DNA of 64,000 bases. It comes from Campylobacter showae. GTDB lineage: Bacteria > Campylobacterota > Campylobacteria > Campylobacterales > Campylobacteraceae. Below, piece after piece: positions 18,920-30,000 of the stretch. The notes beneath the pieces are model-generated. The model searched no databases and had not been told where the DNA came from. It saw only the letters and a list, made by a program, of their open reading frames with translations. Position numbers and translations under genes: made by a program. The stretch's first letter is position 1, and every line of letters begins with the position of its first letter. Location: contig NZ_LR535679.1 in NCBI RefSeq assembly GCF_900699785.1, forward strand, positions 930,001-994,000, read 5' to 3'.

Positions 18920-20632
18920 TTATTTAAAATTTAGATTCTTGACGTTCTCGTCTGTTTGCTTCATCTTCTCTGTCGGAACAGCGCCGATAGGCCATTTGTG
19001 TCCGATAGGAGCAGGTGCTGCAACAGGAGTAGCCTCTTGCGTTAGCTTGATGCTGATGCCGTAAGGAGCAAGCTCATTTACTAGCTCGATTTGTCCTTGG
19101 CGAGCGAACTCTTTGCATTGTCCTAGAATTCTAGCCGCCTCTTCGTCTCCGTGGAAGCCGTAGCTGTTCTCGCTAAATGCGAAGTCCCAGCGGATATGGG
19201 TTTTGCGGTGCAAGTAAAGAGTTTTTTCAAGAGCCTTGCTGATAGCTTCTTTTCTCTCTTTTTCATCGGCGATCGAAGCAAATTTCTCGTGCTTAGCTAG
19301 CTCGGCTCTGGCCGTTTTTATGTCTTGGATCAAAGAAAGTAGCGCATTTTCGCAGTTTCTTAGCTCGTAAGCGTGGCGATTTTGTACGAATGAAATTCTA
19401 TCTTTTAGCACTTGTTCGCTTTGCGGGTGGCAAGTTTTGCAAGCCGCGTTTATATCGGCAAGCGGAGTTAAAATTTCATGCTCGGTGATCTTTTGAGCTC
19501 CGGCGCGTTTATACGGCATGTGGCAGTCTGCGCACGTTACGCCGCTTCTTCCGTGGATACCGGTTGAGCTTAGCTCAGCTTCTGAGTGCTGCATCTTGAT
19601 GATTTTAGCGCCGGTATCTTTGTGGATGTAGTCAAATTTAAACCCGTCCTCTTTGGCTAACTGATCGTCATAGTATTGGTCGAAATTCTCGATCTTAAAC
19701 GGCTCGTCTTTCTTCCAGAAATTCCAAGGGAAGGTTAAAACGGATTCTTTGCCTGCAGGATAGTATTCTACGTGGCACTGCATACAAACGTAGCTTCTCA
19801 TCTCTTGTCTGGTGGCCTTTATACCGCTTTTTGCGTCGGCTTGGTAGCCTCTAGCGACCATTGCGTTTACGAATGCGGGTCTTGTTACTCTTAGGCTCAT
19901 ATCATCTGGCGAGTGGCAGTCTGCACAGGTGCTGCCTAGATGCGATCCGTGGATACTCTCGCCGTGTTTAGCCGCGATTTTTTTCATGACGTCAAAATAC
20001 GGGATAGAGTTCATCTTCGTCCACGCGGCTTTTCTCTTTTCGCCTTCCTCTTTAGGCATTACGTCGAAAAACGGCATAGGCTTAGTTGCAGCAGGCGTAG
20101 GATCGGCAGTTAGGTTATAATCGCCATCAACTTGAAGCGCGGTTAAATATCCGGTGTGGCAATTGACGCAATATCCTGGCTGACCCTTAAATGCAGGAAG
20201 CCCGTGAGCGTTTAGATACTCTTTATCGTTTCTTTTGGTTTCGATCTGATCTATCTGCGAATAGTAGTGGGTTCGCGGTTTGCTGTAATCCACGCCGAAC
20301 GCATAGCCGTTCCAAAACACTGTAGCCGCAGGCCAGCGGATGATCTTGCTATAAGGGAAATCTCCGCCGAAAGCGGTTTCTACAAATTCGCTTCCTTTTG
20401 GATTTTCATCGCTTTTATGCTCCATTTTTTTGTAAGCGTCAAGCTGATTTGGGAAATTTGCGCCCCATTTTTCAAAATCCGGCTCGAGCTCGCTTACCTT
20501 ATTTAGCATTAGCGGGTAAGTTTTTGACTCCTCTTTTTTATGAGCTATGTCGTTATAAAGAGCAAGTACGCCCGCACCGAGTGCAACGGCCACTAAAAAA
20601 GTAACCGCGTATAACAGTTTGTTATTTTTCAT
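18920..20632 (-). CDS. nrfA: Ammonia-forming cytochrome c nitrite reductase NrfA (all five hemes CXXCH)
   Basis: A 570-residue periplasmic pentaheme enzyme reducing nitrite to ammonia with six electrons. An N-terminal hydrophobic segment (about 7-27) serves as signal/anchor. Heme motifs are CVNCH (155-159), CADCH (236-240), CMQCH (283-287, followed by VEYY with the active-site Tyr), CADCH (367-371) and CKTCH (398-402). The first motif, which in most NrfA proteins is CXXCK giving a lysine-ligated active-site heme, is CXXCH here, as remembered for C. jejuni. Maturation then would not need the special NrfEFG-type lyase. It lies 22 bases after nrfH. Confidence 0.95.
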   Translation of the reverse strand: MKNNKLLYAVTFLVAVALGAGVLALYNDIAHKKEESKTYPLMLNKVSELEPDFEKWGANFPNQLDAYKKMEHKSDENPKGSEFVETAFGGDFPYSKIIRWPAATVFWNGYAFGVDYSKPRTHYYSQIDQIETKRNDKEYLNAHGLPAFKGQPGYCVNCHTGYLTALQVDGDYNLTADPTPAATKPMPFFDVMPKEEGEKRKAAWTKMNSIPYFDVMKKIAAKHGESIHGSHLGSTCADCHSPDDMSLRVTRPAFVNAMVARGYQADAKSGIKATRQEMRSYVCMQCHVEYYPAGKESVLTFPWNFWKKDEPFKIENFDQYYDDQLAKEDGFKFDYIHKDTGAKIIKMQHSEAELSSTGIHGRSGVTCADCHMPYKRAGAQKITEHEILTPLADINAACKTCHPQSEQVLKDRISFVQNRHAYELRNCENALLSLIQDIKTARAELAKHEKFASIADEKERKEAISKALEKTLYLHRKTHIRWDFAFSENSYGFHGDEEAARILGQCKEFARQGQIELVNELAPYGISIKLTQEATPVAAPAPIGHKWPIGAVPTEKMKQTDENVKNLNFK

Positions 20633-20654
20633 TTATTTTCCTCCTAGGATTGTT

Positions 20655-21167
20655 TTAAAAGTTATGTGCGTGTCCGGCTTGTCTGTGACAAGATACGCAT
20701 TTTAACGGCTCGTTGGCATTAGCATACTGCCCGTGTTTGCCAGGCAAGCTATCGCCTATAGCTCTTGGATCGACTGAATTTCTAGCATAATCCTTATGGC
20801 ACTCTATACAATTGTTTTGTATGATCTCCTTTTGCTCATCGCTTGCGGTAAACGATACGGGATTATCCAAGAAAGTAAACGCATAACCGTGCAAGAAGCC
20901 GTATTTAGCTTTCGCCAGCCATTTGCTTACGAATTCTTTAGGCATGTGACAATCTATACACGTCGTAACGTGTTGATGTCCGCCCTTAGACCAGCCTTCA
21001 TAGACTTGGTTCATGACGTGGCAGTTTATACAGGCTTCGGGATCGCGAGTAAGATGCTGAGGACCATTAGCGAAAAAGAACGTAAAAATCCCGAATCCGC
21101 CCGTAAGTCCGATAACCGCCAGCAAAGCTATGACCCATTTAGACGCTTTTTTCTTTGCGTTTTCCAT
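20655..21167 (-). CDS. nrfH: Tetraheme menaquinol dehydrogenase NrfH
   Basis: A 170-residue NapC/NirT-family cytochrome that takes electrons from menaquinol and passes them to NrfA. One N-terminal transmembrane helix (about 11-33) is followed by four heme motifs: CINCH, CIDCH, CIECH and CVSCH. The AGGAGG ribosome-binding site (21182-21187) is 14 bases from the ATG, rather far. Confidence 0.95.
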   Translation of the reverse strand: MENAKKKASKWVIALLAVIGLTGGFGIFTFFFANGPQHLTRDPEACINCHVMNQVYEGWSKGGHQHVTTCIDCHMPKEFVSKWLAKAKYGFLHGYAFTFLDNPVSFTASDEQKEIIQNNCIECHKDYARNSVDPRAIGDSLPGKHGQYANANEPLKCVSCHRQAGHAHNF

Positions 21168-23453: not shown

Positions 23454-24359
23454 TTACGCCTTTTTTCTATCTTTAGCCAGCAAAAATATGCACGAGATAA
23501 TGAGCGTAAAGCCCGCGAAATCAAGAAACACGAACTCCGTCCCCAGCCAAAAATAGGCAAACGCCGCTGCGCTAACCGGCTCGATGCACGCGATCATGCT
23601 CGCCCTGCTCGCGCCTATTATCTTTAGCCCCGTCATGTAAAAGCTAAACGCGCATATCGTGCCTAAAATCACCACCGCCGCAAGCGCCGCAAAGCCCTGC
23701 GCGTCGCTCACGCCGCCTAGCTGCCAAACCCGCGTGTAAAGCGCGAGCGCGCTGCCGCCGATGACCATGCCCCAGCCTAAATTTAGCGCGACGGGGTATT
23801 TTTGATTTAGCTTCGTGGGGATGAGACTATAAATCACGACGCCAAGCGCGCTAATGAGGCACCAAACCAGCGCTTCCGCGCTGATAACGAGCGAGCCAAG
23901 ATCGCCGTGGGTGGCGAGCAGCACGACGCCCAGCACCGCGAAAATGAGCGCGATGAGCTCAACCTTTTTAGGCACGCGTCGTTCTAAAAAGCAAACGACG
24001 GCGAGGATGAGCGCGGGCGCGGAGTACTGGATCACGGTCGCGACGGCGGCGTTTGAGAGCTCGACACCGCAAAAGTACGAATACTGCGTCATCATAAGCC
24101 CAAAAAACGCGTAGATGAGCAGCTGCGGCAAAAGCACGCGATCTTTTAGCGGCGCAAAGGCTAGGCGCGGCGAGCGAGCGATGTAATACGCCACCATCGC
24201 AAGCCCGGCGAGGCCTAGGCGGTAGGGCACGAGCCAGTCGGCGCTGACGCCTTTTTGCGTGAACAGATACTGCCCGCAAACACTGCTAAATCCCCATAAT
24301 ACGCCGCCAAGAAGCGTGATAAATACGCCAAAAAATTCGCTTTTTACTAGATTTTTCAT
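23454..24359 (-). CDS. DMT-superfamily (EamA) transporter
   Basis: A 301-residue integral membrane protein with ten hydrophobic helices in two EamA repeats, starting MKNLVKSEFFGVFITLLGG. Members export metabolites or amino acids; the substrate cannot be told from sequence. It precedes the short Sua5-like gene by 13 bases on the same strand and follows the methyltransferase gene after a 31-base gap, so it could share that transcript. Confidence 0.85.
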   Translation of the reverse strand: MKNLVKSEFFGVFITLLGGVLWGFSSVCGQYLFTQKGVSADWLVPYRLGLAGLAMVAYYIARSPRLAFAPLKDRVLLPQLLIYAFFGLMMTQYSYFCGVELSNAAVATVIQYSAPALILAVVCFLERRVPKKVELIALIFAVLGVVLLATHGDLGSLVISAEALVWCLISALGVVIYSLIPTKLNQKYPVALNLGWGMVIGGSALALYTRVWQLGGVSDAQGFAALAAVVILGTICAFSFYMTGLKIIGASRASMIACIEPVSAAAFAYFWLGTEFVFLDFAGFTLIISCIFLLAKDRKKA

Positions 24360-24390
24360 TGCGCGATTATAGCTAAAAATTTCGGCCTAA

Positions 24391-25188
24391 TCAATCTAAC
24401 TTATTTATATCTAAAATCCTACGCCTAAAAAGGTCAAAATTCGCGTCGAGTTCGCTTTTGCGGTTTATAGAAATTTCTATAAATTCCCGCTCTTTTTCTA
24501 TGCCGACGAATTTTCTCCCGAGTAAATTTGCCGCGATACCCGTCGTCGCAGAGCCTGCAAAAGGATCACAAACGACGCTATTTTGAGTGCTCGCCATTAA
24601 AATTAACCGCACCAAAAGCGGTAGCGGTTTTTGCGTCGGATGCTTGCCGCACGCCTTCTCCCACGGCGCGATCGCGGGCAAGTTCCACACATCGCGCATC
24701 TGCTTGTCGTTGTTTAGCTTTTTCATCAGCTCATAGTTGAAAATATGCTTAAATTTCTCACTTTTTCTTGCCCAGATAATCTGCTCCGAGCCGTGCGTGA
24801 GATAGCGGCAGCTAAAATTCGGCGGCGGATTGGTCTTCGCCCACGTGATGACGTTTAGAATTTTATAGTCCAGCTTTTGCAGCGCCCGACCGATTGAAAA
24901 TATATTATGATACGTCCCGCTTATCATTATGCTGCCGTTATTCGTGAGTGCATCTTTGGCGAGCGCAAGCCATTCGAGATTAAATTTATCTATCTCGTCG
25001 ATACCGTAGCTTTTGTCCCACTCGCCCTTGTTTACGCTTACGATTTGCCCGTTTTGAATACTGAGTCCGTCGTTTGAGAGAAAATAGGGCGGATCGGCAA
25101 AAATGAGGTCAAACTCGCCTTTAAATTTAGGCAAAATATTGAAGCAATCGCCTTTAAAAAGCTTAAAATCATCGGCTAACTTAAACAT
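24391..25188 (-). CDS. DpnA-type adenine-N6 DNA methyltransferase, probably GATC
   Basis: A 265-residue beta-class methyltransferase: the catalytic ADPPYFLSNDGLS (DPPY at 32-35) comes before the AdoMet loop DPFAGSATTG (208-217). It closely follows the remembered DpnA (M2.DpnII) sequence in several places: VSVNKGEWDKS, TWAKTNPPPNFSCRY and HPTQKPLPLLVRLI. It would methylate adenine in GATC and protect DNA from the partner nuclease. The ATG (25188) lies eight bases inside the 3' end of the endonuclease gene, so it is coupled to it. The gene looks intact although the endonuclease is currently disrupted. Confidence 0.88.
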   Translation of the reverse strand: MFKLADDFKLFKGDCFNILPKFKGEFDLIFADPPYFLSNDGLSIQNGQIVSVNKGEWDKSYGIDEIDKFNLEWLALAKDALTNNGSIMISGTYHNIFSIGRALQKLDYKILNVITWAKTNPPPNFSCRYLTHGSEQIIWARKSEKFKHIFNYELMKKLNNDKQMRDVWNLPAIAPWEKACGKHPTQKPLPLLVRLILMASTQNSVVCDPFAGSATTGIAANLLGRKFVGIEKEREFIEISINRKSELDANFDLFRRRILDINKLD

Positions 25189-25537
25189 TTTTAAGCACTT
25201 TTATAAAGTAATAAAGCGTGGCGAGATTATAAATTTTAACGCTTTTGTAGGCTTCTTCCAGTTTGTTTTTAGCCGCCAGCCACCCCTGTCCGTCGGTTAT
25301 CCAGATAAATTTAAATCCGCCACAAAGCGCGATCTTTTGCGCTATTTCGATATAAGACCTTGCGACTTCGTTTAGCTTCGAGCCGCCCGTGCCGTAAAAA
25401 TTCGCTTCGATCAGATACGTTATGCCGCCCGCCCTAATTACAAAATCGAAAATCTTTTGATCGCTTCCTAAATTTAGAGCAAATTTTCTACTGCTAACCT
25501 CGGTCTGAAAGCAGATATTTTCACTCTTTTCGGGCAA
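25181..25537 (-). pseudogene. 3' fragment of the DpnII-like endonuclease
   Basis: Contains the catalytic PD-(D/E)xK-type part (FDFVIRAGGITYLIEANFYG) and the C-terminal FIWITDGQGWLAAKNKLEEA. The genuine endonuclease frame enters from the left repeat (SENICFQTEVSS); an accidental start at 25537 lies in inverted DNA. Confidence 0.85.
25506..25525 (+). repeat. Left inverted repeat of the switch
   Basis: TGAAAGCAGATATTTTCACT. The last 14 bases are perfectly complementary to 25823-25836. Confidence 0.9.
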
Positions 25538-25852
25538 AACAAAGAGTGCTTTGATGTGCTAAATTTACTTATTGCCGTTCGCGATAAAAACACGGACGTG
25601 ATAGCGACTAGCGGTGAGCTAACGAAACTCGGAACGTATTTTAAAAGTCCCGAAAAAATTTATGAGTTTTGCCAAGAAAGCGGACTAGATAAAATTTTTA
25701 CGGATGGAAAGGTTAAAAATTTGCACGATTACGTATTCGGCGTGGAAGTCGGGCTCGATACGAACGCGCGAAAAAATCGCGGAGGCGCAAATTTCGCGCG
25801 AACGATTTCAGAGTATCTTGAAAGTGAAAATATCTGTTTTCAAATCCTTTGA
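25526..25852 (+). pseudogene. Inverted middle fragment of the DpnII-like endonuclease
   Basis: The plus-strand frame reads LFGQNKECFDVLNLLIAVRD onward to SEYLESENICFQ, matching the central part of DpnII-type proteins, then enters the right repeat and stops after IL at 25852. There is no ribosome-binding site or start suited to it; it is coding only if the segment is turned over. Confidence 0.85.
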
Positions 25853-26002
25853 ACCGAGTAAAAAATCAAGCGTGTGGAGTTTGATAGAAACGGCTTTTAG
25901 ATTTTTGCCGCATTTTTCAAAGTCGGTAAAGTAGTCAAGGCTTGCATTTGTTTTTCTAAGTGAGCGTAAAAAGTCATCGAATTTCGTTAAATTTGGTTCC
26001 AT
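25808..26002 (-). pseudogene. 5' fragment of the DpnII-like endonuclease
   Basis: Starts at MEPNLTKFDDFLRSLRKTNA and reads about 60 endonuclease residues to TDIFT, where the inverted repeat begins. Beyond that it reads FKIL and stops at 25808 within the inverted DNA. Translation from this start would give a useless 64-residue peptide in the present orientation. Confidence 0.85.
25823..25842 (-). repeat. Right inverted repeat of the switch
   Basis: AGTGAAAATATCTGTTTTCA, the reverse complement of the left repeat except at one position. Confidence 0.9.
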
Positions 26003-26009
26003 AAATTTC

Positions 26010-26201
26010 CTAAATTTCAGTTTTCGGCTCATCCGCGATCGTCGCTTTAAAGTCCACGCAGACGAAGTTCTCTGCACTCAAAACAATCTCGCAATTTTCG
26101 TAAGCCGTCTTCGCGATCTTACACGCTTCTTCTTTATTTTTCGCTTTAATTACAACCTTTTTAGCCAAAGTTTCGGCGATCTCTATTTTAAAATCTTTCA
26201 T
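26010..26201 (-). CDS. DpnD/PcfM-like small protein
   Basis: A 63-residue protein (MKDFKIEIAETLAKKVVIKA, then an Ala/Glu-rich helix and EIVLSAENFVCVDFKA) with the pattern of the DpnD/PcfM family, small proteins seen with DpnII-type restriction systems and on plasmids; their function is not known to me. Its ATG overlaps the stop of the upstream gene by one base and it ends seven bases before the endonuclease start, so it sits in the middle of the R-M operon. Confidence 0.75.
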   Translation of the reverse strand: MKDFKIEIAETLAKKVVIKAKNKEEACKIAKTAYENCEIVLSAENFVCVDFKATIADEPKTEI

Positions 26202-26911
26202 CAAATCCCCATTTTTATTTTTGCGCTCTCGCTTTCTAAGTCGTATTGTTTGGCGATACTTTCGTAGCTCGCAAATTTCACGCTACCGGCAATATCTTTG
26301 TATATCGACGCGCTTATCACGCTTTGAAACTGCCTCAACCTGCCCTCATCCGCAACGATAAACATTTTGGCGTTAAAGTCCTGAAGTTCGTAAAATTTAT
26401 TGAGAGAATTTTTAAAGTCCGTCGAGTGCTCGACCTCGAAAAACGCGTAAGGTAGATTTCGCTCGTTAAACCAGATCGCATCGACGCTGCGCGCCTTATT
26501 TAGTATGCTCGGGTAGGCAAATTCGTAAATCGCCTTTAGCGAAGTGAGGTCGTCCAGCTTTTTGCTTGCGACGAAGCTTTTATTTTTATCCTGTGGCGGC
26601 ACGTAGGTTTGAAATTTGCGCAGGTTGCCGATCTCTACGATAAGGCCTTGAAAATAGGAGTGAGTGAAGCTATCTCGCGGATTCGCGCCACTTTCAAACT
26701 CTTTTAAAATTTGTGTCTCAAGCGACTTTAAGCCCCAAAGACCCGGGCGAATCTTAAAAAACTCTGCATTTTCTTGCAGGATACGCCGTATAGAAGCAAA
26801 TGGCGTTTTCGTCGACCACGAACTAACGTCGGTCGCAGAATAAAGTTGCGATAGAGTCGCCGCGCCGCCAAGCTCTATCATCGCCGCTATCACAAAATCT
26901 TTTTGTTTCAT
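26201..26911 (-). CDS. Winged-helix plus putative PD-(D/E)xK nuclease-like protein heading the R-M operon
   Basis: 236 residues. Residues 1-62 look like a HARE-type or winged-helix domain (FVIAAMIELGGAATLSQLY ... RILQENAEFFKIRPGLWGLK), common at the front of restriction proteins. Residues about 85-235 contain a segment with DAIWFNERNLPYAFFEVEHS, where Asp144 and Glu159/Glu161 could form a variant PD-(D/E)xK site. It is first of four coupled minus-strand genes ending in the methyltransferase. It could be a regulator or an accessory nuclease; neither is proven. Confidence 0.55.
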   Translation of the reverse strand: MKQKDFVIAAMIELGGAATLSQLYSATDVSSWSTKTPFASIRRILQENAEFFKIRPGLWGLKSLETQILKEFESGANPRDSFTHSYFQGLIVEIGNLRKFQTYVPPQDKNKSFVASKKLDDLTSLKAIYEFAYPSILNKARSVDAIWFNERNLPYAFFEVEHSTDFKNSLNKFYELQDFNAKMFIVADEGRLRQFQSVISASIYKDIAGSVKFASYESIAKQYDLESESAKIKMGI

Positions 26912-27065
26912 CTTAAAATTCGTCCGTTTTTATATCGTTGCGAGCGCACACAAATTTAACCCCACATAAAATAAACTTCCCTGCAAGATACTCAAAATCA
27001 AATTTGTCTTTTATTTCGAGCTCTAAGCCCCAAATTTAGACAAATTTAACCGCACAAATTCAGCC

Positions 27066-30000
27066 TCACTCGCCGCCTAAATATTCCTGTAGGCTTTTGA
27101 CTTCGAGCGCACTGCCGTCCTGCACGCTTTTTAGCGATTTAGCCGCCGCTAGAGCCGCCGACATCGTCGTGAAATACGGGATCTTAAATCGCATGATGTT
27201 TTGTCTGATTTTCTTGCCATCCTCGCTGTTTGATTTGCTGTCGCTGGTGTTGATGACGAGCGCGATGTCGCCGTTTTTGAGCCTATCCTCGACGTTTGGG
27301 CGGCCTTCGCTGATCTTGTAGACGAACTCGCTCTCTACGCCCGCGTCATTTAAAATTTTATACGTTCCGCCCGTGGCGATGATTTTAAAGCCGAGATTTA
27401 TGAGCTCGCGCGCCAAATTTGCGGCGTATTTTTTGTCCGCGTCGGCAAGAGTCAAAAAGACTAGGCCGCTAGTAGGAAGCGAGTTACTCGCGGCGATCTG
27501 GCTTTTGGCAAAGCTTTTGGCAAAGCTCTCGGATATACCCATGACCTCGCCCGTACTTTTCATCTCAGGACCCAGGATTAGATCGGCGCCCGGGAGCTTG
27601 CTAAACGGAAATACGGCTTCTTTGACGCAGACGTGATTTTTCACGCGAGGCTTGAGTATGCCGCGCTCCTCGTAAACCGCGCCGTAGTTATCGTAAAATT
27701 TAAGCGCCTCGCGCAAATTTCCTTGCCACATCACGCGCGTAGCGACCTTTGCCATCGGTACGCCCGTCGCCTTGCTAACAAACGGCACCGTGCGGCTAGC
27801 GCGCGGGTTTACCTCGATTATGAAAAGTTCGTTCTCATAGATGGCAAACTGGATATTCATAAGCCCCACGACGCCTAAATTTAGCGCTATGTCGCGGGTT
27901 TGGTTTTCTACCTTTTCGATCATCTGCGCGGTCAAATTTAGCGGAGGCAGTATGCACGCGCTGTCGCCGCTATGGATGCCCGCCTCCTCGATATGCTGCA
28001 TCACGGCGCCGATATAGACGTCCTTGCCGTCGCTGATCGCGTCCACGTCGAGCTCTACGGCGTCTTGTAAAAATTTATCGATTAGCACTGGCGAGTGATT
28101 GCTGACCTTGACCGCCTCGCTCATGTATAGGCGTAGCTCCTCGTCGCTGTGCACGCGTCTCATCGCGCGCCCGCCTAGCACGTAGCTAGGGCGCACGAGT
28201 ACCGGATAGCCGATAGCGGCAGCCTTTTCTAGAGCCTCTTTTTCGCTTGTCGCAGTGTCGTTTCGCGGCTGTTTGACGCCTATTTTAGAGATAAATTCGC
28301 TAAATTTTTTGCGGTCCTCGGCGACGTCGATCGTGCGCGCGCTGGTGCCGATGATTTTTGCGCCCGCTATGCTTAGGCGTTTGGCGAATTTTAGCGGAGT
28401 CTGGCCGCCAAAATGCACGATCACGCCGTCCGGATTTTCGTGCTCGATCACGGCTCTAACGTGCTCGAAATCGATCGGCTCAAAATACAAAATATCGCTC
28501 GTGTCGTAGTCGGTACTGACGGTTTCTGGGTTGCAGTTATACATTATGGTTTTGACGCCCATGTCGCGCAGCGCGTAGCTAGCGTGCACGCAGCAGTAGT
28601 CAAACTCGATGCCTTGGCCTATGCGGTTTGGCCCGCCGCCGATGATCATCACTTTTTTCTCTTTTTGCGCCGAATTTGAGCTCAAATTTGACTCCGCAAA
28701 ATTTGACGCAAGATGCGGCAGCTTGGTGATATTCGTCGTCGAGTAAAGATACGGCGTGAGCGCCTTAAACTCGCCCGCGCAGGTATCAACTTCGTTGTAT
28801 TCGAGGTTTATGCCCATTTTCTCGCGCGCGAAATATATGTCGTTTTGACCTAGGTCGAGGTTGTCTTTTAAATTTATCAGGTGCGCGATCATCTTGTCCG
28901 AAAAGCCCATCGTTTTAGCTTCGCGAAGCAGCGGCTCGTCGTTTAGGATGTCCATGTCGATACGCTCTTCAAATTTAACTATCTGCCAAATTTGATCCAA
29001 AAACCACGGGTCGATCTTGCTCATCTCGTGCACTTCGGCCACGCTAAGCCCGCCGCGAAACGCCTGCGCGACGTATAAAATGCGGCTTTCGTTCGCGTTT
29101 CTAAGGCCGTAAATAAGCGCGTTTTTCTCCAAATTTACGAAGTTAAATCCGTAATAGTCCTTTTCCATCGAGCAAAGCGCCTTTTGGATGCTCTCCTTAA
29201 ACGTCCTGCCGATCGCCATCACCTCGCCCACGCTCTTCATCGCGGTGCCTAGATACGGGTTTGCGCCCGGGAATTTCTCAAACGTAAAGCGCGGGATCTT
29301 GGTCACGATATAGTCGATGACGGGCTCAAAGCTAGCAGGCGTGCCGGTGATGTCGTTTTTGATTTCATCCAGGCTAAAGCCCACGGCTAGTAGTGTAGCA
29401 ACCTTGGCGATCGGGTAGCCCGTGGCCTTTGAGGCGAGTGCGGAGCTGCGGCTCACGCGCGGGTTCATCTCGATCACGATCATGCGGCCGGTTTTTGGAT
29501 TTATAGCAAACTGCACGTTGCTGCCGCCCGTATCCACGCCGATCTCGCGTAAAATTTTAAAACTCGCGTCGCGCATCGCCTGATACTCTTTGTCAGTTAG
29601 CGTAAGAGCCGGCGCAACCGTGATAGAGTCGCCCGTATGCACGCCCATGGGATCAAAATTTTCGATCGAGCAGACGATGATACAGTTGTCGTTGCGGTCG
29701 CGGATGACCTCCATCTCGTACTCTTTCCAGCCTAGCAAGCTCTCTTCGACCAAAATTTCATGTATCGGGCTGGCGTCTAGGCCGGTTTGGGCTAGTTCTT
29801 TAAATTCGTCGATATTATACGCCACGCCGCTGCCAGCACCGCCAAGAGTATAGCTAGCGCGGATGATGAGCGGGAAGCCGATGTTTGCGGCTGCGGCTAG
29901 CGCCTCGTCCATGTCGTAGGCGTATTGGCTTTGCGGCAAGTCCATGCCGATCTTTTGCATCGCCTTTTTAAACTCCTGCCTATCCTCGCCCTTTTTGATC

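What the first reader, a model, noticed from the sequence alone, without database searches (positions are those of the whole stretch)
25181..26002. Restriction endonuclease switched off by an invertible internal segment
The DpnII-like gene is split: N- and C-terminal parts on the minus strand, middle 297 bp on the plus strand. A 20-bp inverted repeat with one mismatch (25506-25525 / 25823-25842) sits exactly at both breakpoints. Reversing the segment on paper gives DIFT-LFGQNKECFD at one junction and ESENICFQ-TEVSS at the other, both in frame, and one 273-codon protein of normal DpnII size with all motifs in order. The repeats are in coding sequence. The coupled methyltransferase is intact, so the OFF state is safe for the cell. 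Phase variation of restriction enzymes usually works through homopolymer slippage or specificity-subunit shuffling; inversion inside the coding region of a type II nuclease would be unusual.
Basis: partly seen in the sequence, partly recalled or inferred. Interest (0 to 1): 0.93.

Follow-up and report, generated by a model that had tools for sequence, protein, structure and literature searches.

The report
Flipping DNA switch inside restriction gene
In Campylobacter bacteria, a gene predicted to make a DNA-cutting defence enzyme contains a short stretch that faces forward in some genomes (one complete gene) and backward in others (a broken gene), and the flip is likely made by XerH, an enzyme known for separating joined chromosomes, which would switch the defence on and off while the partner gene predicted to protect the cell's own DNA stays intact.

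Summary
A DpnII-type nuclease gene (PF04556) in a C. showae-like Campylobacter is cut in three by an inverted internal segment with inverted repeats at both breakpoints; turned, it reads as one 273-codon frame. The same site pair sits at the same codons in 12 Campylobacter genomes, window included: 9 OFF, 2 ON, 1 split across contigs. OFF G021 turned equals ON G025 at 818 of 822 bases; the OFF G042 segment matches ON G046 reversed at 99.4%. A methylase tree needs at least 3 orientation changes. The segment keeps dN/dS near 0.1 between OFF alleles. The repeats resemble difH, the XerH site: TTGAAAA-N6-TTTTCA. The 6-bp spacer is identical at both sites of every locus, has four types, and never equals the chromosomal difH spacer; the crossover intervals of two ON/OFF pairs overlap at the spacer. 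XerH is the only tyrosine recombinase family shared by four carriers compared. Against XerH: outer difH position T14 is absent at all sites. Not shown: XerH acting here, switching within a culture, any phenotype.

The parts
25181..25519 (-). C-terminal piece of the DpnII-type nuclease, holding the conserved D...E-x-N...K residues (predicted catalytic core)
   Evidence: PF04556 positions 177-271, E 1.8e-33; invariant D186, E199, N201, K209 in A1; in the predicted fold these follow the second site. That they are catalytic is recalled knowledge of the PD-(D/E)XK type, not tested
25505..25524 (+). difH-like site at the C junction: left half CTGAAAG, spacer CAGATA, right half TTTTCAC
   Evidence: 12 of the 13 difH positions called invariant in PMC3325230; same 6-bp spacer as the other site; outer T10 and T14 not met
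25515..25833 (+). invertible segment (319 bp between the spacer centres), here in the OFF orientation; encodes the predicted helical middle of the nuclease on the plus strand
   Evidence: PF04556 positions 55-163, E 1.7e-30, on the strand opposite to its flanks; in the other orientation in G046 and G025
25824..25843 (-). difH-like site at the N junction: left half TTGAAAA, spacer CAGATA, right half TTTTCAC
   Evidence: 13 of 13 invariant difH positions; 15 of 16 letters of the core pattern, the only place that good among 127,960 positions of the window; outer T10 and T14 not met
25811..26002 (-). N-terminal piece of the nuclease; in this orientation its frame stops after 64 codons
   Evidence: PF04556 positions 1-52, E 1.9e-12; translation
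24391..25188 (-). partner DNA methyltransferase, open frame, outside the invertible segment
   Evidence: PF01555 E 4.8e-56; PADLOC MTase_II E 8.4e-98. GATC as its target is inferred from recalled similarity to DpnA
26010..26204 (-). small DpnD/PcfM-like protein, just upstream in the same direction
   Evidence: PF14207 E 1.7e-15
26201..26911 (-). conserved 236-aa protein at the head of the four-gene run; weak type II REase profile match
   Evidence: PADLOC REase_II PDLC03534 E 1.7e-6; found beside the nuclease in all 12 carriers

Best explanation
In Campylobacter the 319-bp middle of a DpnII-type nuclease gene is found in both orientations between two inverted, difH-like sites within the coding sequence, and the chromosome-dimer recombinase XerH is the likely enzyme that flips it, which would switch restriction on and off. 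Shown by sequence: both orientations, one pair of alleles differing at 4 of 822 bases once turned; an open 273-codon frame in the ON form; a frame stopped at codon 64 in the window's OFF form; identical 6-bp spacers at the two sites of every locus; crossover intervals that overlap at the spacer; purifying selection on the segment between OFF alleles; an open methylase frame outside the segment. Inferred: that XerH (probably with FtsK, as in H. pylori) does the exchange; that it is reversible within a population; that ON cells restrict and OFF cells do not while the methylase goes on protecting the chromosome, so that either change of state is safe. The spacers, which differ from that of the chromosomal difH, would keep these sites from recombining with difH itself.
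For: 1) Orientation: of 48 genus genomes, 12 have PF04556. The 11 that carry the paired sites are 8 OFF (G005, G019, G021, G023, G041, G042, G044, G047), 2 ON (G025, G046) and 1 split between contigs whose ends read ON (G024); the twelfth, G002, is uninterrupted and shows no repeat at these places. 2) Opposite alleles: G021 turned = G025 at 818 of 822 bases (595 as assembled); the G042 segment = G046 reversed at 99.4%, C piece 98.2%, N piece 89.1%. 3) At least 3 orientation changes on the methylase tree with G024 left out (12 rows), 4 with it (13 rows); G044 is not in the tree, its contig ends before the methylase. 4) dN/dS of the segment in OFF/OFF pairs: 0.13 (window-G041), 0.11, 0.07, 0.14; flanking pieces 0.05-0.29. 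5) Sites: one of the two has all 13 invariant difH positions in each of 11 loci, the other 11-12; three homologues without the repeat score 9-10 of 16 to the core pattern at these places, three carriers 13-15. 6) Spacer: four types (CAGATA, CCGATA, CAAATA, CGGATA), the same at both sites in 14 of 14 rows = 11 distinct loci, and in G024; the 10 places fetched as chromosomal difH have CTATAA. Spacer matching goes with amino-acid changes (SENICFQ to SENIGFQ or SENIRFQ; LKTD to LKTN). 7) Crossover: G021/G025 confine it to 12 bp (CAGATATTTTCA), G042/G046 to 16 bp (TTTGAAAACAAATATT); the overlap is the spacer plus 2 bp. 8) XerH (solved H. pylori XerH 5jjv, E 3.3e-94 for the G041 protein) is 88-92% identical in G041, G023, G047 and G005 and the only tyrosine recombinase family common to these four; a PF00589 match of its strength is in 47 of 48 genus genomes. 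9) H. pylori XerH recombines paired difH at two ectopic chromosomal places and needs FtsK; XerH expressed in E. coli also recombines difH on a plasmid (PMC3325230, sections 22 and 23 read; passages). 10) ON and OFF forms of this clade both occur in public protein collections.
Against: The conserved outer difH position T14 is met at 0 of 28 sites and T10 at 12 of 28 (14 rows). One site per locus has 1-2 changes in the 13 invariant positions; in H. pylori difH, changes at 18, at 19-22 together and at 23 abolished or weakened recombination, though none of them is the A22G seen here. The difH pairs in that assay were repeats giving excision; I saw no test of an inverted pair. XerH was identified in relatives; the window's own genome is not held, and 30 recombinase frames found no match in the window. 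With up to 3 mismatches the 16-letter pattern has 5 matches in the window against 2.1 expected, a number reached by 6 of 100 shuffles, so the resemblance rests on the place of the matches, not on their number. G042 and G005 carry frameshifts in the turned frame, so in some strains the gene may be decaying. P0006 carries the G variant in its N half-site (LKADIF), so the left-half difference does not always sit on the same side. OFF outnumbers ON, so switching to ON may be rare. The four carriers compared for recombinases are a part of the 11, and G047 is 91% complete.
Confidence: 0.66

Rival explanations
1. The switch is real, but another recombinase does the exchange: a phage- or island-type tyrosine recombinase or a serine invertase that uses a similar site.
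For: Carriers have 2-17 PF00589 matches each; outer difH positions T10 and T14 are not kept at these sites.
Against: G047 (91% complete) has only two PF00589 matches, XerH and a 251-aa integrase-like frame whose best matches in the other three genomes are 31-35% identical. PF00239 serine recombinases are in 4 of 11 carriers. The core and the 6-bp spacer layout are those of difH.
Confidence: 0.21
2. General homologous or template-switch recombination between short inverted repeats flips the segment now and then, without a site-specific enzyme.
For: Exact or one-mismatch repeats of 16-25 bp were found in most loci; the crossover intervals of two ON/OFF pairs, 12 and 16 bp, are no more than the shared stretch of the two sites.
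Against: The G019 pair is broken by a mismatch and was not among the best repeats, yet its spacers still match; spacers match in every locus over four types while the right halves are free to differ; repeats as short as 12 and 16 shared bases sufficed.
Confidence: 0.08
3. A fixed ancient inversion and pseudogene decay.
For: OFF is the commoner state (8 OFF, 2 ON, 1 split of 11 carriers among genus genomes); frameshifts in the turned frame of G042 and G005.
Against: ON and OFF alleles identical at 818 of 822 bases once turned; at least 3 changes on the tree; dN/dS 0.07-0.14 in OFF pairs; full-length ON relatives 87% and 85% identical to the turned window protein, P0002 and P0003.
Confidence: 0.03
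4. The OFF form makes a functional product of its own (separate fragments that regulate or reassemble) rather than simply lacking the enzyme.
For: M and C pieces stay open; database annotation lists such pieces as separate DpnII proteins, e.g. P0124, P0131, P0132, P0171, P0180.
Against: The three pieces lie on two strands; ON proteins are of normal length for the family; the frame kept open in the six full OFF loci without frameshift is the ON frame.
Confidence: 0.02

Closest known systems
Intragenic / gene-altering programmed inversions (Chanin et al. 2024 Nature; Milman et al. 2023 NAR). Seen only as citations in passages of PMC11868660 and PMC11892184; neither paper is held, their content is recalled
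   Same: Inverted repeats within a gene; inversion changes the protein. From recall, Milman et al. list type II restriction-modification among predicted target families
   Different: From recall, those are mostly allele swaps between a gene and a partial copy, or recoding, usually without a named recombinase; here one nuclease goes between whole and broken, and the sites resemble a known housekeeping recombination site
hsdS inversion systems of type I restriction-modification (pneumococcal cod locus, PMC4948785, start of abstract in search listing; hsdS invertons, PMC11892184, passages)
   Same: DNA inversion alters a restriction-modification system
   Different: hsdS inversion changes specificity, and so methylation; here the nuclease gene is broken and the methylase gene is untouched
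XerH/difH chromosome-dimer resolution (PMC2731167 passages; PMC3325230 sections 22, 23 and passages; PMC5241119 passages; PMC5357621 passages)
   Same: Site core TGAAAAC-N5-TTTTCA with a 6-bp central region; XerH-strength match in 47 of 48 genus genomes
   Different: Here paired, inverted, in coding sequence, with a private spacer and without the conserved outer T14
Xer-type phase variation in mollicutes (Ureaplasma parvum, PMC3599477; Mycoplasma agalactiae Vpma with Xer1, PMC5634654; starts of abstracts in search listing)
   Same: Tyrosine recombinases of the Xer kind flip DNA (Vpma) or are proposed to (Ureaplasma)
   Different: Those act on surface-protein genes; here the candidate is the housekeeping Xer of the Campylobacterales, with sites inside one enzyme gene

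Membership tests
DpnII-type restriction endonuclease (PF04556) | Profile match along the whole length, in order | tested here: met
   Three pieces cover positions 1-52, 55-163, 177-271 of 278, each over the cut-off
DpnII-type restriction endonuclease (PF04556) | GATC cleavage | not testable with these tools
   Inferred from the family and the DpnA-like methylase (recalled)
Intragenic invertible element (inverton) | Inverted repeats bounding the segment inside one gene | tested here: met
Intragenic invertible element (inverton) | Both orientations observed in otherwise near-identical DNA | tested here: met
   G021/G025 818 of 822; G042/G046 segment 99.4%, C piece 98.2%, N piece 89.1%
Intragenic invertible element (inverton) | Both orientations within one culture | not testable with these tools
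   No reads. P0161 and P0170 join an ON left junction to an OFF right junction, as an assembler might from a mixed sample; suggestive only
XerH/difH site | 13 invariant positions (17-23, 29-34) as given in PMC3325230 | tested here: inconclusive
   13 of 13 at one site in each of 11 loci; 11-12 of 13 at the other
XerH/difH site | Conserved outer positions T10 and T14 | tested here: not met
   T14 at 0 of 28 sites; T10 at 12 of 28 (14 rows)
XerH/difH site | 6-bp central region identical between recombining partners | tested here: met
   14 of 14 rows, 11 distinct loci; G024 too
XerH/difH site | XerH encoded in the same genome | tested here: inconclusive
   Window's own genome not held. In relatives: XerH-strength PF00589 match in 47 of 48 genus genomes, exception G044 (68% complete); identity as XerH checked for G041 and by 88-92% identity in G023, G047, G005
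XerH/difH site | XerH binds and recombines the site | not testable with these tools
   Needs the experiment named under next steps

The most novel reading that the evidence does not exclude
Campylobacter has turned its chromosome-untangling recombinase into a switch for immunity: XerH flips the middle of a restriction nuclease gene at two difH-like sites that evolved inside its coding sequence, with private spacers that insulate them from the real difH, and, since XerH needs FtsK in H. pylori, the coin toss between a restricting and an open cell may happen at cell division.
Probability: 0.53. Interest if true: 0.88.

Novelty: new variant of a known kind. Interest (0 to 1): 0.81.

Why it matters
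The phase-variable restriction systems named in the papers I saw switch methylation or specificity, which changes the whole epigenome. This one would leave the methylase intact and toggle only the nuclease, a clean way for a population to hedge between phage defence and DNA uptake. If XerH is the flipper, a housekeeping enzyme of chromosome segregation, and perhaps the division machinery through FtsK, would set the switching rate, and difH-like pairs could be sought in other genes across the Campylobacterales. Several OFF pieces are annotated as separate DpnII enzymes, so the switch is hidden in databases.

Tried and rejected
Assembly error: rejected; eight other genomes carry the inverted form and two the uninterrupted form of the same site pair. 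Decay: rejected as a general account. Serine invertase: unlikely, PF00239 in 4 of 11 carriers. A recombinase beside the switch: none found; tblastn of 26 tyrosine and 4 serine recombinase frames against the window gave no match, which would miss a remote family. Promoter or terminator in and around the segment: 3 promoter-like and 4 terminator-like sites in 24300-27100, no more than in shuffles. Synonymous constraint in the sites: weak and mixed, P 0.004 to 0.42 over 10 pairs, so not relied on. Number of difH-like matches in the window: not remarkable by itself. Beyond Campylobacter: of the 80 genome-contig loci kept (203 relatives found), the only inverted arrangements are the Campylobacter loci L061-L063; in the rest the pieces that could be placed read in one direction. 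GATC in the window: 302 against 347.5 expected; not informative. The 236-aa neighbour: no Pfam match, no PDB sequence match, low-confidence model, pLDDT 59.6. Solved structures: no sequence match for the nuclease; best Foldseek match BstEII, E 6.9e-6, TM-score 0.49.

Literature: the listings show no title or abstract start about a difH-driven or inversion-switched type II nuclease; this covers only the open-licence library held, and most listed papers were not opened. The two papers most likely to hold prior art are not held.

Full report
What is there. The window is from a Campylobacter near C. showae: its methylase gene is 86% identical in DNA to that of G041, whose nuclease locus is identical to C. 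showae CC57C, L061 (825 of 825 bases). Its own assembly is not held. Four genes run on the minus strand: a 236-aa protein (26201-26911), a DpnD/PcfM-like protein (26010-26204), the DpnII-type nuclease (25181-26002) and a DNA methyltransferase (24391-25188). The nuclease is in three PF04556 pieces, profile 1-52 on the minus, 55-163 on the plus and 177-271 on the minus strand. The repeat pair at the breakpoints is the only one of its kind in the window; 20 Markov resamples gave none. Turning the segment gives one 273-codon frame. As assembled, the frame from the N end stops after 64 codons, and the piece with the conserved D and E residues is cut off.

Both orientations exist. PF04556 is in 12 of 48 genus genomes. 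Eleven carry the paired sites. In 8 the middle is inverted (G005, G019, G021, G023, G041, G042, G044, G047; in G044 the contig ends before the C piece), in 2 it is not (G025, G046), and in G024 the gene is split over two contigs that cover 1-245 and 371-839 of the gene and read in the ON direction. G002 is uninterrupted, and so are L064 and G050; none of the three has the repeat. The named loci L061 (C. showae CC57C), L062 (a Campylobacter MAG) and L063 (C. concisus AAUH-12CDrec-a) are identical over the gene to G041, G047 and G023 (825/825, 816/816, 826/826) and are not counted again. With the window, carriers are 9 OFF, 2 ON, 1 split. G021 (OFF), turned with the crossover in the spacer, equals G025 (ON) at 818 of 822 bases; as assembled it matches at 595. 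The segment of G042 (OFF) matches G046 (ON) in reverse at 99.4% over 341 columns; their C pieces are 98.2% and their N pieces 89.1% identical. On a tree of the neighbouring methylase the orientation changes at least 3 times (12 rows, G024 left out) or 4 times (13 rows); G044 is not in it. The concisus group is unresolved inside, but the G042-G046 pair has support 100/99.

Selection. Between OFF alleles the segment, read in its ON frame, has dN/dS 0.13 (window-G041), 0.11 (G021-G023), 0.07 (G021-G019) and 0.14 (G019-G023); the flanking pieces give 0.05-0.29. The OFF/ON pair G047-G046 gives 0.20; G021-G025 has too few changes. A segment never translated in the ON frame should not show this. The turned frame is open in six of the eight OFF loci that hold the whole gene and shifted in G042 and G005; G044 is cut. 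Some strains may be losing the gene.

The sites. Campylobacter difH, the XerH site, has the core TTGAAAACTATAATTTTCA (PMC2731167 passages; PMC3325230 Table 2). I fetched ten places with that core, in eight carriers and two other genomes; all have spacer CTATAA; that they are the working difH rests on the match to published difH. The N-side site in the window is TTGAAAA-CAGATA-TTTTCAC and the C-side site CTGAAAG-CAGATA-TTTTCAC. Against the 16 fixed letters of TTGAAAACNNNNATTTTCAA they score 15 and 13. The first is the only place at 14 or more among 127,960 positions of the window, both strands; four score 13, of which one is the C site and one the N site read on its other strand. The number of matches alone is not striking: 5 with up to 3 mismatches against 2.1 expected, reached by 6 of 100 shuffles. 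What is striking is that the best matches are the two breakpoints. Of the 13 difH positions reported as invariant, one site has all 13 in each of 11 loci and the other 11-12; the conserved outer T14 is met at 0 of 28 sites and T10 at 12 of 28. Three homologues without the repeat score 9-10 of 16 at the same places, three carriers 13-15. In the 48 genomes, each has a match to the 15-letter core with at most one mismatch, but the reversed-pattern control also gives 0-4 per genome; among the exact matches listed I count seven that are neither difH-like in spacer nor this gene (list truncated in G042).

Spacer and crossover. In 14 of 14 rows (11 distinct loci) the spacer is the same at the two sites, and in G024 too, yet four types occur (CAGATA, CCGATA, CAAATA, CGGATA), none of them CTATAA. 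Matching spacers go with amino-acid changes: SENICFQ becomes SENIGFQ or SENIRFQ, and LKTD becomes LKTN. In G021/G025 the A/G mark in the left half stays with its flank and the last base of the right half moves with the segment, so the exchange lies within 12 bp, CAGATATTTTCA. In G042/G046 the left halves are alike, the right halves (TTTTCAC, TTAACAG) move with the segment, and the exchange lies within 16 bp, TTTGAAAACAAATATT. The two intervals overlap at the spacer plus 2 bp. This fits a tyrosine recombinase of the Xer kind; taken alone it would also fit other exchange within the shared stretch.

Which enzyme. A PF00589 match at E 2e-34 or better is in 47 of 48 genus genomes; the exception, G044, is 68% complete. 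The G041 protein matches solved H. pylori XerH at E 3.3e-94. Among four of the 11 carriers whose tyrosine recombinases I compared, XerH, 88-92% identical, is the only family common to all; G047 (91% complete) has only XerH and one integrase-like frame 31-35% identical to its best matches in the others. Serine recombinases are in 4 of 11 carriers. No match to these recombinases lies in the window. In H. pylori, XerH recombines paired difH at two ectopic chromosomal places, needs FtsK, and works on a plasmid when expressed in E. coli (PMC3325230, sections 22 and 23 read, passages). Against XerH: T14 is missing; I saw no assay of an inverted pair; and changes at nearby difH positions abolished or weakened recombination there.

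In public proteins. Of 7455 matches to the G046 enzyme the best 120 were listed; I classed P0001-P0013. P0001-P0004 are full-length ON forms with the site residues (my pattern missed the right junction of P0003, whose frame runs through), and P0006 is a 220-aa ON piece; P0002 and P0003 are 87% and 85% identical to the turned window protein, P0006 94%. OFF-type junctions are in 13 of 35 C-piece clusters and 29 of 38 M-piece clusters listed; the rest were cut short, outside the clade or unclassed. Two of the 29 (P0161, P0170) join an ON left junction to an OFF right junction, as might arise when both forms are assembled from one sample. NCBI lists several OFF pieces as separate DpnII enzymes.

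How it would work. The predicted fold of the uninterrupted G046 enzyme (mean pLDDT 88.5, pTM 0.61) puts the first site at the start of a helix (residue 54) and the second (160-166) between a helix and the sheet with the conserved D186 and E199. Inversion would thus leave a short N-terminal stub and remove restriction, while the methylase frame is untouched. A cell that turns ON would already be methylated. Such a restriction-only switch differs from hsdS shuffling and from phasevarions, where methylation changes. That the methylase is expressed in OFF cells is inferred: its start overlaps the end of the nuclease gene, so translational coupling could matter and was not tested.

Verdict. The inversion as a genomic fact is near certain (about 0.95); XerH as the enzyme is likely (about 0.66); switching within a culture and the defence phenotype are inferred.

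Noticed in passing
window 26201-26911 (-): A conserved 236-aa protein at the head of the operon, 59-66% identical to its relatives in nine aligned carriers, weakly like a type II REase profile (E 1.7e-6); perhaps a second nuclease or a regulator of the system.
   Followed up: partly
G042 and G005 alleles (L032, L034): The OFF segments of these two carry frameshifts in the turned frame, so these strains may be locked OFF and decaying.
   Followed up: partly
P0161, P0170: 168-aa frames with an ON left junction and an OFF right junction, as if assembled from a sample holding both orientations.
   Followed up: partly
L171, L172 (G024 contigs C18, C21): The assembly breaks inside the invertible segment, with both contig ends in the ON direction; about 125 bp of the segment are missing.
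   Followed up: partly
P0006: An ON piece 94% identical to the turned window protein has the G variant (LKADIF) in its N half-site, so the left-half difference can change sides or mutate.
   Followed up: no
window 18920-21167 (-): Two neighbouring c-type-cytochrome-like genes (570 and 170 aa, CxxCH motifs) resembling nrfA/nrfH by eye (recalled, not searched).
   Followed up: no
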